A DNA stretch of 64,000 nt from the NCBI RefSeq assembly GCF_900115545.1, contig NZ_FOWV01000004.1, positions 186,001 through 250,000 on the forward strand, given 5' to 3'. A program made the position numbers and the translations under genes. This document shows, piece by piece, positions 45,949 through 50,521 of this stretch. Position 1 is the stretch's first letter; each line of letters starts with the position of its first letter. The notes below the pieces were generated by a model that did no database searches, was not told where the DNA came from, and was given only the letters and a program-made list of their open reading frames with translations. Source of the stretch: Ralstonia sp. NFACC01 (GTDB taxonomy: Bacteria > Pseudomonadota > Gammaproteobacteria > Burkholderiales > Burkholderiaceae).

Positions 45949-46467
45949 TTAATCCCTGAGCGCTGTGTCCAGTGTCTGCGGCGTCAGCAACCCGCTCGAT
46001 GCATGGCGCTTGCCGTCCGGGCGCAAGATGATCGTGCGCGGCATCTCGCCCTGCCAGCCAGGGTCGAGCGCGGCGCGCAGCCGCTCCGGCATGTCTTCGG
46101 CATTGGCGTACTGCGGCACGCGGGCAATGTCGATCTTCCTGTCGCGGGCCAGCGGCGCCAGCGCGCGGTTCAGCATCTCGGCCTGGTCGGGCCCGTCCAT
46201 CGACACCATCACCACATCCACATCTTGCTTGGCGCTACGCCGCCATTGCGCGATACGCGCGATGTTCTCGCGGCAGTAGCTGCATTCCAGTGACCAGATT
46301 TCGACGATGAGCGGGCGCGCGGGTGGCGTCTGCAGCAGCGCCGGCACATCACGCGCATGCAACGGCTGGAACTGCAGCGCACCTGCGGCCTGCGCGGCGA
46401 AGGTGGCGGTAAAGGCGGCGGCGGATAGCGCCACGCCCATCGCAAACGATTTCCATCGAATCTTCAT
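45949..46467 (-). CDS. Periplasmic thioredoxin-like protein (TlpA/Sco type)
   Basis: A 172-residue secreted protein. The signal peptide covers about 1-28 (core GVALSAAAFTATFAAQA). A thioredoxin-fold active site C62-S-Y-C65 follows W58 (WSLECSYCREN), as in TlpA/ResA or copper chaperone relatives. It is the last gene of the TonB-receptor operon and its ATG overlaps the preceding stop by four bases. Likely keeps cysteines reduced or handles metal for its neighbours; the exact role is inference. Confidence 0.85.
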   Translation of the reverse strand: MKIRWKSFAMGVALSAAAFTATFAAQAAGALQFQPLHARDVPALLQTPPARPLIVEIWSLECSYCRENIARIAQWRRSAKQDVDVVMVSMDGPDQAEMLNRALAPLARDRKIDIARVPQYANAEDMPERLRAALDPGWQGEMPRTIILRPDGKRHASSGLLTPQTLDTALRD

Positions 46468-47717
46468 TTCGATGCCTCCAATGATGGATTGGACGGGCTG
46501 ACATTGCCGATGTCGATCAGCCGGTAGCCCTCGGCCTGCGTGCGCCACGATAGGTAGACACGGCCATCGCGCGCGAGCAGTTGCGGGTGATCGCTTCCGC
46601 CATCGGTGTTTGCCACGCTGGCCGGCGCTGTCCAGTGCGCGCCGCCATCGGTCGATTTGCGCAGCAGGATCTGCATGCGGTCTTCAGCAAACTGTTTCCA
46701 GACGAGCCACAGTGCGCCATCCTCCGCGAGCAGCGCGGGGTGCGACGCCTGCGCACCAGCTTGTGCCGAACCGGCAAAGGACCATGCGCCGCCGATCGGC
46801 TTGCCGCCGGCCGAGAGCCGGCTGTAGAACAGGCCAGGCTTGTCCTGCAGCACCGAGAACCACGCCATGTGCCGCACGCCATCCGCCGTAACGGCCAACG
46901 CGGGGCCATGGTGCGGACACGCATCGACGCGCCATTCCGAGAACGTCGCCCGCGTAACGGCAAGCGGCGCGTTACCAATCGGTAATGTTGTCAATGCGTG
47001 GTCGCGGATCTGCCCCGCAAACACGTTGCGCCACAGCGCGAGCATGTGGCCGTCGGCATCGGGCGCCAGCGCAATGCGGCAGCATTCGCAGGTCTGGTCG
47101 ATGACCTTGCGTTCGGGTGCGAAGGTGGCGCCGCGGTCGGTGGAAACGGTGTAGTACACCGCCGCGCCGTCGTACGGCTGTTTGGCCGCCTGCGCGCGCA
47201 GCAGGTCGCGCTTGTCGATCCACGTGACGAAGATATGACCGGCGCGGTCGACCGCGATCGAATCGAAGCGGTGCGTGATCGGCTGGCGGTCGTGGTGGAC
47301 GGTGACTGGCGCGCTCCATGTCTTGCCGCCGTCAAGCGAGCGCGAGAAACGCACGAAGCCCGTGTACGGCGCATCGAGCGGGCGCGACCAGCTTACATAC
47401 AGCGCGCCGTCCGGGCTGGCGATGACTTTCGGACGGTTCTCGCCGTCGGTATAGATCGGCTCGGGTTGCGGGTTCACACGCTGCGGCTTGGAGAGCGTCT
47501 TGCCGAGGTCATCGGATGAGGCGATCACCACGTGCTGCCCTTCTGCCCACGTCACCCACAAGCGCCCTGCCTTGTCGAACGCCGCGGTCGTCGCAAGCTG
47601 CGGCTTTGCGGCAGACTTGGCTGCCATGGCGCCGTGGTCGTGGCCTTCGTGCGCGGGCGCCACCGTGGCCGCGAGCGCCAGCAGCGCACCGGCAAGGAAT
47701 CGAGGAATCGACTGCAT
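46464..47717 (-). CDS. Periplasmic Asp-box (BNR/exo-alpha-sialidase-like) protein
   Basis: A 417-residue beta-propeller protein with a signal peptide (about 1-22). The mature N-terminus is HEGHDHGAM, a His-rich metal-binding-like start. At least four Asp boxes are visible (SSDDLGKTL, SLDGGKTW, STDRGATF, STDGGAHW). A CECC cluster lies at 210-213. The Arg triad and catalytic residues of true sialidases are not evident. It begins in a TAATG overlap with the receptor gene. I favour a metal-binding periplasmic role over sialidase activity. The start at 47729 is an alternative. Confidence 0.82.
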   Translation of the reverse strand: MQSIPRFLAGALLALAATVAPAHEGHDHGAMAAKSAAKPQLATTAAFDKAGRLWVTWAEGQHVVIASSDDLGKTLSKPQRVNPQPEPIYTDGENRPKVIASPDGALYVSWSRPLDAPYTGFVRFSRSLDGGKTWSAPVTVHHDRQPITHRFDSIAVDRAGHIFVTWIDKRDLLRAQAAKQPYDGAAVYYTVSTDRGATFAPERKVIDQTCECCRIALAPDADGHMLALWRNVFAGQIRDHALTTLPIGNAPLAVTRATFSEWRVDACPHHGPALAVTADGVRHMAWFSVLQDKPGLFYSRLSAGGKPIGGAWSFAGSAQAGAQASHPALLAEDGALWLVWKQFAEDRMQILLRKSTDGGAHWTAPASVANTDGGSDHPQLLARDGRVYLSWRTQAEGYRLIDIGNVSPSNPSLEASK

Positions 47718-50035
47718 TACAGACGCCATTTCAGTTGTCCATAGAAGGTGCGCGACGGATACGGGTGGTACACGAAATACCGCCGGTCGGTCAGGTTGTC
47801 GACGCCCAGCGCCAGCGTGATGTGCTTGTCGATACGGTAGCTGGTCTTGAGGTCCACGGTGAAGAAGCTGCTGGTGCCGCCGTAGACATTGGGCAGCACA
47901 TCGGTGTTGTCGAGCGTGCCGTATTGCCGCCCCGAATAGCGCACGCCTGCGCCCACCGTCCAGTCGGGCGTGGCATGCCAGCTGGCAAACATGTTTGCAC
48001 GCACGCGCGGCATGCGCGGCCAAGTCTTGTCGACGTAGGTGGGGTTGGCGGCGTCGGCCAGCGTTTTCGATTGTGTGAAGGCAACGTTGGCCTCTAAGTC
48101 AACGCCGCGCACACCTGCATCCTGCAGAACGTCCTGCCCTGAATACGCCAGTTCGATACCGCGCGTGCGCACGCGGTCCACGTTCTGTACGTTCGTCACG
48201 TTGGGTGTGACCGTGATGTTGGTCTGCGTGTAGATGCTGTCGCGCACATCGCTCTGGAACAGGCTGGTACGCAGCACGCCGTAGGGCACGGCCTGCTCGA
48301 CGGTGAAGTCGAAATCATTGGCGCGTTCAGGCTTGAGATTCGGATCGTTGTTGACGATCGTGTTGCCGCTGATCGTGCCCTGAAACAGCTCCGCCACCGT
48401 CGGAAAGCGCACTGCACGGCCATACGACAAGCGCAGCAGCGTGTCTTGCGTGGCCTGCCATTGGATAGCCGCCTTGGGCGAGAACGCGTCTTCAGTACGG
48501 CTGGCGTAGCCCAACGTGCTCGTGCCGTTGCCCAACTGGCCGTTGTAGGCGCGCCAGCTTTCGTAGCGCAGGCCCAGCGTGGCGAGCCAGCGCGGCGCAA
48601 ACGCCCACGCGTCCTGCAGGAAGACGGCCTGCGTTTGCGTGTCGCCCTGGTAGCTGGACTTCAACGTGGATAGCGTTTCCGTCGACCAGTTGGTCGCGTT
48701 GAAGGTCTGGTTACGCAGGTGGTATTGGTCGTAGTGGTAGCCGGTCGTGAAGGTGTGGCCGGACACCGTGGGCGACGTTGCCTTGATGTCGAAGTTGGAC
48801 CAGCCGGTGCCGACGCCGTAGAACACCGTGCCGGGTCCATTGCCGGCCGCCGTGTTCGACGCGCGCAGGATGTCGCGCGAGACGTTGTAGGCCGACGCGT
48901 TGGTGTCGATCTTCCAGCCGCCGATCTTGCCTTTCACGCCCAGGCCGTAGAGCCAGTTTTCCTGGTCGCCGTTTTGCGGGGCGAAGGTGTTCGGGGCGAT
49001 CGTATAAGGCGTGCCGTTGATCAGCACATTGCCACCCGTGACGGTGTTGCCGGCGGCGTCGCGCAGGAAACTGAGCGCCTGATCGTTGAAATGGTTTTCC
49101 CAATGGCCCAGCGTGAGCGATGCCTCCAGGCTGTCGCTGAACACGTAGCCGAATCGCAGCGTCTCTTGCAGCTGCTGCGTGCGCTCAAGCATCTGGGGCC
49201 CGAGAATCACGCGCGGCTGGCCGTTGGGGCCGAGATCCTGCCGCGCACCCGTGACCGGCACGGGCGTGCTGCCTGCGGTGAACCTCGAGTTGGGCGTGGC
49301 GTATTGCATCGGCTGGCTGTCGTTCTCCAGCCGGTCGACCGACAGCGCATACCAGAACTTGCCAATCCGATCGCCCAGCGACGCGCTCTCGTGGTTGCCG
49401 GTGACGTTGCGCGAAAAGCCGTAGGCATCGTTGTAGCGCTGGCTCATCACCTGCGTCTGCGCGGCGGCCTCGAATTTTTCGGGGCGGCGCAACGTCATCG
49501 CGATGGTCGTGCCCATCGAATTGCCCGGCAGCAGCGCCGAGAACGGCCCATACAAAATATCGACGCGCGCCAGGTCGTCCGGCCCGACCATCGACCAGCG
49601 TGGCGGGTAGCTGTAGCTCGAGCCCAGCAGGTTCGAGAGCAGGATGCCGTCGGCGTACAGCAGGCCGCGTGCGCTTTGAATTTCGTTGAAATCGCGGCCG
49701 GCAAAGATGGAGTTGCGGTCGCCAATGAAGCGGCGGCGCACCATCACGTTGGGCTGGTATTTGACCGCGTCTTCGGTGGTGACGACGTTGCGGTCGGCCA
49801 GTTGATCTGCCGTCACGCTTTGCACGACTGCGGGCGTATTGCGGGCGAACGGCGCGGGGTTGGCGTTGGCCCGCACCACGGTGGGCGCGAGTTCCTGCGT
49901 GACTGGCACGGGCACGGGGGCCGCATCTTCAGCAGCAAAAGCGGACAGCGGTGCCGCCGCGCTCAGGGCGAGCGCAGCACGGCACACCAGCGTGCGCTTA
50001 GGAGCAGCGGCCCCAGCGCGCTTGTGGAATGACAT
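47717..50035 (-). CDS. TonB-dependent outer-membrane receptor
   Basis: A 772-residue receptor with signal peptide (about 1-35), plug domain (LADRNVVTTEDAVKYQPNVM, then RRRFIGDRN and DILYGPFSALLPGNS) and a 22-strand barrel ending in LTDRRYFVYHPYP and the C-terminal KWRL. It matches receptors for metals or metallophores. GGAGA lies before the ATG. Its upstream neighbour is a DUF2946 gene and its downstream genes are metal-like periplasmic proteins, so I infer copper uptake. Iron-siderophore uptake is the main alternative. Confidence 0.93.
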   Translation of the reverse strand: MSFHKRAGAAAPKRTLVCRAALALSAAAPLSAFAAEDAAPVPVPVTQELAPTVVRANANPAPFARNTPAVVQSVTADQLADRNVVTTEDAVKYQPNVMVRRRFIGDRNSIFAGRDFNEIQSARGLLYADGILLSNLLGSSYSYPPRWSMVGPDDLARVDILYGPFSALLPGNSMGTTIAMTLRRPEKFEAAAQTQVMSQRYNDAYGFSRNVTGNHESASLGDRIGKFWYALSVDRLENDSQPMQYATPNSRFTAGSTPVPVTGARQDLGPNGQPRVILGPQMLERTQQLQETLRFGYVFSDSLEASLTLGHWENHFNDQALSFLRDAAGNTVTGGNVLINGTPYTIAPNTFAPQNGDQENWLYGLGVKGKIGGWKIDTNASAYNVSRDILRASNTAAGNGPGTVFYGVGTGWSNFDIKATSPTVSGHTFTTGYHYDQYHLRNQTFNATNWSTETLSTLKSSYQGDTQTQAVFLQDAWAFAPRWLATLGLRYESWRAYNGQLGNGTSTLGYASRTEDAFSPKAAIQWQATQDTLLRLSYGRAVRFPTVAELFQGTISGNTIVNNDPNLKPERANDFDFTVEQAVPYGVLRTSLFQSDVRDSIYTQTNITVTPNVTNVQNVDRVRTRGIELAYSGQDVLQDAGVRGVDLEANVAFTQSKTLADAANPTYVDKTWPRMPRVRANMFASWHATPDWTVGAGVRYSGRQYGTLDNTDVLPNVYGGTSSFFTVDLKTSYRIDKHITLALGVDNLTDRRYFVYHPYPSRTFYGQLKWRL

Positions 50036-50060
50036 CGGAAAGGTCTCCGGATTGCGATGG

Positions 50061-50074
50061 CGTTGGCCGCAACG
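50061..50074 (-). promoter_or_regulatory. Small hairpin between DUF2946 and TonB-receptor genes
   Basis: CGTTG/CAACG stem with a 4-nt loop in the 84-bp gap between the DUF2946 stop and the receptor start, ahead of the receptor's Shine-Dalgarno. It could couple translation of the leader gene to the receptor. Confidence 0.4.
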
Positions 50075-50119
50075 AGGGCCAGACGCAAAGGCGCCACGGA
50101 GTGCATCCCCGCAGGCGCG

Positions 50120-50521
50120 TCAGATCGACAACGACGGAGAAGCGGGAGGCGCGCGCGACTCGGCCACACGCAGCGCGCTGCGCGCGTAGACGGGCGCCGG
50201 GGTGGCCGGCGGCCGCACGCGATAGACGAAATGGGCGGAGGGAACATCCAGCGCCGGCAATGAGGCCAGCGCCAGCCCGGCTGCAAACCCCGGGCAATAT
50301 AGACAGTGCGCCACGCTGTGGTGGGCGGCCGAATCGTCGATAGAGCCATCGCCTTGCAGGTCGATGGCAACCTGCACGGTGCTGCCATGCGGGGCCGTTA
50401 CGCTGCACAGCTCGACGGCAAGGGTGCCCGTGGCCGCCGCACGGGCGGAAGCGAGCACCGGCGACAGTACGTTCAGTACGATCGCAAGCCAGACGAGGAA
50501 GAGCCAGCGGCGATGGAGCAT
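50120..50521 (-). CDS. DUF2946 protein, probable copper-responsive leader gene
   Basis: A 133-residue protein with an N-terminal signal/membrane segment (about 5-27) and the family motif H67, H68, H72, C73-L-Y-C76 in AHHSVAHCLYC. In Bordetella a DUF2946 leader gene (CruR) ahead of a TonB transporter operon represses it post-transcriptionally when copper is present, through its CxxC motif, as I recall. The arrangement here is the same: leader gene, 84-bp gap, receptor. The start at 50521 gives a good signal segment. Copper control is inference for this copy. Confidence 0.82.
   Translation of the reverse strand: MLHRRWLFLVWLAIVLNVLSPVLASARAAATGTLAVELCSVTAPHGSTVQVAIDLQGDGSIDDSAAHHSVAHCLYCPGFAAGLALASLPALDVPSAHFVYRVRPPATPAPVYARSALRVAESRAPPASPSLSI

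What the first reader, a model, noticed from the sequence alone, without database searches (positions are those of the whole stretch)
45949..50521. DUF2946-TonB receptor-Asp-box-thioredoxin operon, probable copper uptake with a leader-gene sensor
Four genes are coupled on the minus strand: TAATG and ATGA overlaps link the last three, and an 84-bp gap with a small hairpin follows the DUF2946 gene. The set has a metal theme visible in the sequence: H-rich and CxxC (C73/C76) in DUF2946, HEGHDHG and CECC in the Asp-box protein, and CSYC in the thioredoxin-like protein. The DUF2946 leader before a TonB transporter matches the Bordetella CruR-type copper switch as I recall it. The Asp-box and thiol proteins as a downstream processing pair are not something I know to be characterised.
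Basis: partly seen in the sequence, partly recalled or inferred. Interest (0 to 1): 0.75.

Follow-up and report, generated by a model that had tools for sequence, protein, structure and literature searches.

The report
Copper-sensing leader operon with swapped partners
A Ralstonia operon begins with a gene resembling a known copper-sensing leader, followed by an outer-membrane transporter and an uncharacterised propeller-plus-thioredoxin pair that, in related operons, gives way to a proposed copper reductase.

Summary
The four genes are real, on one strand and in the order described; 16 of 16 Ralstonia genomes searched carry them. The copper-leader reading is well supported by sequence, not by experiment.

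The transporter is not CrtA, the Bordetella one: the solved CrtA chain is in the library searched and gives no match at E up to 10. Among 55 other genomes of the order with this transporter class, an Asp-box gene lies beside it in 25 (thioredoxin too in 21) and PepSY_TM, a proposed copper reductase, in 13; both together in none of the stretches fetched. On the transporter tree the partners changed several times. YcnI follows in five.

The conserved core of the Asp-box protein is its four cysteines (CECC and CP); HEGHDHG is not conserved. My reading: the Asp-box/thioredoxin pair is a thiol-based substitute for the heme-based PepSY_TM step in periplasmic copper handling. Metal, redox chemistry and regulation are inferred. 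My literature searches listed no description of this pair.

The parts
50120..50521 (-). DUF2946 leader gene (CruR-type), 133 aa, hydrophobic export-signal-like N-terminus (by eye)
   Evidence: PF11162 54.7 bits; the one DUF2946 match in the genome; present in 16 of 16 Ralstonia genomes
50294..50305 (-). codons of CLYC (C73-C76), the putative copper-sensing CXXC
50144..50155 (-). codons of RAPP (R123-P126), arrest motif in CruR, 46 residues after the CXXC, 7-residue tail
   Evidence: role from PMC9426467
50036..50119 (-). 84-nt intergenic region, richer in C than G, weak hairpins
47717..50035 (-). TonB-dependent transporter, 772 aa, non-CrtA class ('class W' in this report)
   Evidence: tree
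46464..47717 (-). apparently exported Asp-box (BNR) propeller-type protein, 417 aa, four Cys in all
47079..47090 (-). codons of CECC (C210-C213)
   Evidence: invariant in 24 of 24 rows of A1; CxCC in 23 of 23 ORFs
46905..46919 (-). codons of CPHHG (267-271): Cys and Pro conserved, the two His vary
45949..46467 (-). TlpA/ResA-like, apparently exported thioredoxin-fold protein, 172 aa
46273..46284 (-). codons of CSYC (C62-C65), redox motif
   Evidence: both Cys invariant in 19 of 19 rows

Best explanation
This is a copper-acquisition operon under a CruR-type leader. When copper is scarce, the nascent DUF2946 peptide stalls at RAPP and keeps the message open; copper bound by CXXC releases the stall and shuts off the downstream genes (mechanism shown in Bordetella, inferred here). 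The transporter, of a class distinct from CrtA, brings a copper complex into the periplasm. There the Asp-box propeller takes the metal at a four-cysteine site (C210, C212, C213, C267), and the TlpA/ResA-like thioredoxin keeps those thiols reduced so that Cu(II) can be taken up as Cu(I) and passed to oxidase assembly factors. The pair thus does with thiols what the heme-type PepSY_TM protein is proposed to do in sister operons. Shown: gene set, motifs, conservation, exchange of the two partner modules around one transporter class. Inferred: metal, binding, redox steps, destination, regulation.
For: Leader: DUF2946, CXXC-46-RAPP (45 in B. pertussis), CLYC and RAPP in 7 of 7 named Ralstonia loci, C>G excess over leader and gap. 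Copper context: of 55 class-W transporter loci, DUF2946 lies upstream in 26, PepSY_TM beside in 13 (Pfam confirmed for L173, L199 and L205; the rest by my own profile), YcnI next in 5, with PCuAC following in 2. Exchange: Asp-box 25, PepSY_TM 13, both 0 of 55 in the stretches fetched; tree with supported sister swaps; in 5-6 of 6 independent pairs absence of one goes with presence of the other. Tight module: of 80 named Asp-box loci, thioredoxin follows in 77 of 79 with room, a transporter precedes in 61 of 75, all three in 59 of 74. Site: the only four Cys of the protein are kept almost throughout. CxxC and a Pro of the cis-Pro kind (recalled) are invariant in the thioredoxin.
Against: DUF2946 does not prove copper: in Caulobacter it heads a zinc-efflux operon. 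The leader is optional: 17 of 25 Asp-box-linked class-W loci lack it and 38 of 61 named ones, and it shows no association with the Asp-box partner on the tree. 9 of 26 class-W leaders lack R[AG]PP at the expected spacing, among them 3 of the 4 in PepSY_TM operons. The 84-nt gap is shorter than the 162 nt of Bordetella and the hairpin is weak. The closest solved transporter to the class profile is a heme receptor, PhuR. The window's own genome has three PepSY_TM genes elsewhere, so replacement is shown beside the transporter only, not for the whole genome. Four Cys in an exported protein could simply be two disulfides. 10 of the 55 transporter loci have no recognised copper neighbour.
Confidence: 0.5

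Rival explanations
1. Copper operon, but the Asp-box protein is a plain periplasmic copper store or chaperone whose four Cys form disulfides or a structural site, and the thioredoxin only helps it fold; no redox chemistry on copper.
For: Strict Asp-box/thioredoxin adjacency (77 of 79) suits a client and its dedicated thiol reductase; exported proteins with an even Cys number often hold disulfides (general knowledge).
Against: Exchange with PepSY_TM, a proposed reductase, suggests more than folding help.
Confidence: 0.25
2. The operon handles another metal or metal complex: iron/heme or zinc, with DUF2946 sensing that metal.
For: Best solved match to the class profile is the heme receptor PhuR (E 2.7e-35); a DUF2946 gene heads a zinc-efflux operon of Caulobacter; CutF-like leaders are not all copper-specific.
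Against: YcnI, PCuAC and PepSY_TM neighbours of the same transporter class; P0002 has no His between H439 and H687, the stretch in which heme receptors carry a conserved one (motif recalled, not tested).
Confidence: 0.17
3. The Asp-box protein is an enzyme of the sialidase-like superfamily that breaks down an imported copper chelate to free the metal.
For: Profile match to sialidases (E 1.7e-7); BNR_2 over cut-off.
Against: No RIP motif typical of sialidases in P0003 (motif recalled); the best profile matches cover about 100 positions only; Cys are among the most conserved residues.
Confidence: 0.06
4. The leader works by the CutF mode (copper switches downstream translation on via a stem-loop over the ribosome site) rather than the CruR mode.
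For: CutF is a DUF2946-like leader with the opposite sign; a stem near the transporter start is predicted.
Against: Stem is weak (z -1.93); acquisition genes should be repressed, not induced, by copper; CXXC-RAPP spacing matches CruR.
Confidence: 0.1

Closest known systems
cruR-crtA-crpH operon of Bordetella pertussis (PMC9426467, PMC12914433, PMC13038864)
   Same: DUF2946 leader with CXXC and C-terminal RAPP at 45-46 residues, then a TonB-dependent transporter, then a periplasmic or periplasm-facing partner
   Different: Transporter of another class (no match to CrtA 9RVQ at E up to 10); partner is Asp-box plus thioredoxin instead of PepSY_TM; gap 84 nt instead of 162
Class-W transporter operons with PepSY_TM (e.g. 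L173, L177, L199, L204)
   Same: Same transporter class (45% identity to L173, 37% to L199) and a DUF2946 leader in those four
   Different: PepSY_TM protein in place of the Asp-box/thioredoxin pair; of the four leaders only that of L177 has R[AG]PP at the expected spacing
Periplasmic thioredoxins in CuA/ScoI copper-site maturation (as cited in the discussion of PMC13038864; TlpA/ScoI detail recalled)
   Same: A TlpA/ResA-like thioredoxin paired with an exported Cys protein linked to copper
   Different: Here the client would be an Asp-box propeller, not ScoI or CuA
CutF leader of Rhodobacter capsulatus (PMC9973294)
   Same: DUF2946-like exported leader with a copper-binding motif and a C-terminal Pro motif
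   Different: CutF raises expression of a copper oxidase with copper; this operon encodes uptake-type genes
TccA of Caulobacter vibrioides (PMC12617631, passages)
   Same: TonB-dependent receptor proposed to feed copper to an oxidase
   Different: Sequence not compared here; the words BNR, sialidase and TlpA do not occur in that paper's main text

Membership tests
CruR-type leader | DUF2946 domain | tested here: met
   54.7 bits, cut-off 23.7
CruR-type leader | CXXC and C-terminal RAPP spaced about 45 residues | tested here: met
   46 residues between, 7-residue tail
CruR-type leader | first gene of an operon-like set with a TonB transporter | tested here: met
   order in 16 of 16 Ralstonia; a joint transcript was not tested
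CruR-type leader | long intergenic region and C>G bubble | tested here: inconclusive
   gap 84 nt against 162; C>G present: leader skew 0.094 against mean 0.009 of 48 long open frames of the window, 1 of 48 as high; leaders exceed their transporter in 20 of 26 loci
CruR-type leader | copper-dependent Rho termination | not testable with these tools
   needs RNA and reporter work
CrtA transporter family | sequence relation to CrtA (9RVQ/9RVX) | tested here: not met
   P0002 no match at E up to 10; class profile no match at 1e-10; 9RVQ is in the library
CrtA transporter family | followed by PepSY_TM (over 75% of crtA loci in PMC12914433) | tested here: not met
   Asp-box follows
CrtA transporter family | binding-site residues Y130, W265, E337, Q356, H358, R395 | not tested
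   no alignment to CrtA to place them on
OprC (TIGR01778) | NCBIfam equivalog score | tested here: not met
   50.6 bits against 472.45
Sialidase (GH33) | Asp-boxes | tested here: met
   at S127, S192, S355 and a weaker one at S68
Sialidase (GH33) | RIP motif (recalled) | tested here: not met
   absent from P0003
TlpA/ResA-like thioredoxin | CxxC and cis-Pro (recalled) | tested here: met
   C62, C65, P143 invariant in 19 of 19; profile hits ResA 5.4e-6, TlpA 2.6e-5
TlpA/ResA-like thioredoxin | Pfam AhpC-TSA cut-off | tested here: not met
   24.5 against 26 bits

The most novel reading that the evidence does not exclude
The Asp-box/thioredoxin pair is a new, widespread thiol-driven copper reductase-chaperone of the periplasm that has repeatedly changed places with the heme-driven PepSY_TM protein beside the same transporter class: two chemistries for one step.
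Probability: 0.35. Interest if true: 0.75.

Novelty: new variant of a known kind. Interest (0 to 1): 0.52.

Why it matters
How bacteria get copper across the outer membrane and hand it over in the periplasm is poorly known; the CrtA structure and the CrpH study appeared only in 2026. This work points to a second transporter class under the same kind of leader and to an uncharacterised four-cysteine propeller family that is common in beta- and gammaproteobacteria (564 relatives among the matches returned by a capped scan of species genomes). The repeated exchange with PepSY_TM turns the open question of whether CrpH is a copper reductase into a comparison of two unrelated proteins in the same slot.

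Tried and rejected
HEGHDHG as the metal site was dropped because it is not conserved. The gap hairpin as a regulatory element was dropped as weak. Promoter and terminator scans gave no more than chance. CrtA as the transporter's family was rejected. A first iterated thioredoxin profile drifted onto out-of-frame ORFs and was replaced by one built from the clean cluster. My first context tally (Asp-box 20, PepSY_TM 10) missed partner genes lying upstream of the transporter and was replaced (25 and 12, plus L205 by Pfam). Leaders missed by the profile were sought by motif in loci without DUF2946; the few candidates looked like out-of-frame ORFs. The exclusivity p-value (Fisher 8.6e-5) ignores relatedness; the tree-based sign test gives only 0.03-0.06. 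No association of the leader with the Asp-box partner was found.

Full report
What is there. Four minus-strand genes lie end to end: DUF2946 (50120-50521), a TonB-dependent transporter (47717-50035), an Asp-box protein (46464-47717) and a thioredoxin-like protein (45949-46467), the last two with export-signal-like N-termini by eye. The last three genes overlap by TAATG and ATGA; an 84-nt gap follows the first. The named loci at 86-95% identity to the Asp-box protein are all Ralstonia (7 loci), so the window is from that genus or very near it. All four genes lie together and in order in 16 of 16 Ralstonia genomes searched, the window's own included. The own genome holds one DUF2946 match.

The leader. 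CruR of Bordetella pertussis (PMC9426467; abstract, first third of the Results, sections on conserved features and synteny, discussion, passages) senses copper by CXXC in the nascent chain; copper releases stalling at a C-terminal RAPP and lets Rho stop transcription before the transporter gene. The CXXC-RAPP spacing there is 45 residues. Here it is 46, with a 7-residue tail. All 7 named Ralstonia loci keep CLYC and RAPP. Of 26 leaders before transporters of the same class, 17 have CXXC and R[AG]PP 42-46 residues apart; 9 do not, and end in forms such as QAPP, RDPP or TGPP; those 9 include 3 of the 4 leaders of PepSY_TM operons. The leader's sense strand is richer in C than G: skew 0.094 against a mean of 0.009 (sd 0.053) for 48 long open frames of the window (stop to stop, 150 aa or more, a proxy for genes), 1 of 48 as high; in 26 other loci the leader exceeds its transporter gene in 20. 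This fits a Rho site but does not show one. The hairpin in the gap is weak.

The transporter. It is not CrtA. The CrtA crystal structures 9RVQ/9RVX (PMC12914433, data section) are in the sequence library used, since two other DUF2946-linked transporters match them, but P0002 gives no match to them at E up to 10, and a profile of 13 members of its class none at 1e-10. It also scores far below the OprC equivalog. I call its class W. The best solved relative of the class profile is the heme receptor PhuR, so heme is a rival reading. Of the His, Met and Cys of the window protein, apart from the first Met, only H427 (50), H434 (41) and H757 (53) are shared by more than 40 of 55 aligned rows (one short row, L247, was left out of 56).

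Partners of class W. I searched 399 genomes of the order with P0002; 56 matched at E <= 1e-80, the window's own among them. For the other 55 I used fetched surroundings of mostly 8-9 kb (7 of the 55 had been fetched as DUF2946 loci), scored with profiles of my own and, for selected genes, Pfam. An Asp-box gene lies beside the transporter in 25 (thioredoxin as well in 21), PepSY_TM in 13 (12 by profile, L205 by Pfam; Pfam also confirms L173 and L199), both in 0. YcnI (DUF1775) is next in 5 (L175, L228, L234, L239, L241), followed by PCuAC in L239 and L241; ExbB in L176; a cupredoxin-like protein slightly under its Pfam cut-off in L240; 10 have no recognised partner (following ORFs read by eye, one of them, L232, by Pfam). 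DUF2946 lies upstream in 26 of 55: 8 of 25 with Asp-box, 4 of 13 with PepSY_TM, 14 of the 17 others. In a tree of 55 transporters (window included) the three partner labels need 9 changes (shuffled mean 24.2), and supported forks include the sister pairs L205 (PepSY_TM)/L207 (Asp-box) and L204 (PepSY_TM)/L206 (Asp-box). Of 6 independent pairs differing in Asp-box, PepSY_TM went the other way in 5-6; the sign test is 0.03-0.06. Fisher's 8.6e-5 ignores relatedness. Against a genome-wide replacement: the window's own genome has three PepSY_TM genes elsewhere (two full, one in two pieces of one frame), of unknown role.

The PepSY_TM protein CrpH (PMC13038864; abstract, subfamily section, discussion) supports heme-copper oxidases and is speculated by its authors to be a periplasmic copper reductase. 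If two modules take turns beside one transporter class, often under one kind of leader, the simplest reading is that they do related work.

The Asp-box/thioredoxin pair. The loci come from Ralstonia, Burkholderia, Paraburkholderia, Cupriavidus, Massilia, methylotrophs, Nitrotoga, Rhodanobacteraceae and others. In A1 (24 rows: P0003, 2 Ralstonia and 21 of the 29 relatives fetched; rows with a stop inside and four more were left out) CECCR and CPHHG are invariant. Among 23 Asp-box ORFs over 350 aa in loci fetched by transporter or DUF2946, a choice blind to these motifs, CxCC is in 23, CECCR in 21 and CPHHG in 19; three of the four exceptions keep Cys-Pro but change a His (CPEHG, CPHQG, CPHNG) and the distant L188, not class-W-linked, has CSCC and CPVNG. 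So the four Cys, the only ones in P0003, are the core. Split ORFs under 350 aa were not counted. The fold is of the sialidase Asp-box kind by profile without the RIP motif (motif recalled). The thioredoxin is TlpA/ResA-like with invariant CxxC and Pro in 19 rows, 18 of them chosen from the named loci.

Reading. Copper complex in through class W, copper taken by the four-Cys site, thiols kept reduced by the thioredoxin, hand-over to oxidase assembly. The leader closes the operon when copper is ample. Only the anatomy and the exchange beside the transporter are shown; metal, redox chemistry and regulation are inferred.

What is in print. CruR-headed operons with transporters, PepSY_TM, PCuAC, ScoC, YcnI, CopC, MbnP/H and AhpC_TSA genes are described; the last may include this thioredoxin. 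The main texts of PMC9426467, PMC12914433 and PMC9973294 contain neither BNR nor sialidase. Searches for DUF2946 (10 papers) and for sialidase, BNR and Asp-box terms with copper and TonB listed no paper whose title or abstract start tells of this pair; the listings are capped and I did not open most of the papers. Supplements could not be read and most subscription papers are not held, so absence is not proven.

Noticed in passing
L065, L067, L074, L078, L082, L083, L084, L088, L091, L099, L106, L117 (Rhodanobacteraceae): A histidine kinase and a response regulator (in many also a POT-family transporter) lie upstream of the transporter-Asp-box-thioredoxin genes where others have DUF2946. Assigned by clustering; Pfam was run on one of each kind only (Fis-type regulator in L065, kinase in L081, POT in L066). 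A two-component system may replace the leader.
   Followed up: partly
L066, L070, L077, L081, L089, L092, L093, L098, L116 (Luteibacter): The Asp-box/thioredoxin pair stands without an adjacent transporter, suggesting the pair is a unit of its own.
   Followed up: partly
L169:2545-3135 and L189:2981-3577: A half-length Asp-box ORF (196 and 198 aa) lies on the opposite strand just before a DUF2946-transporter-PepSY_TM-like operon whose transporter is not class W; a remnant or a half-size form.
   Followed up: no
L183: Three DUF2946 genes in one 8.7-kb stretch at about 3.3-3.4-kb spacing in an unnamed same-family genome.
   Followed up: no
L079, L127, L235, L236, L237; L204, L206: Leaders of methylotroph and similar loci end in QAPP and two others in RDPP instead of RAPP, while the operon order is kept; arrest-motif variants worth testing.
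   Followed up: no
L208, L231: Gene order Asp-box, thioredoxin, transporter instead of transporter first: the module is kept although permuted.
   Followed up: partly
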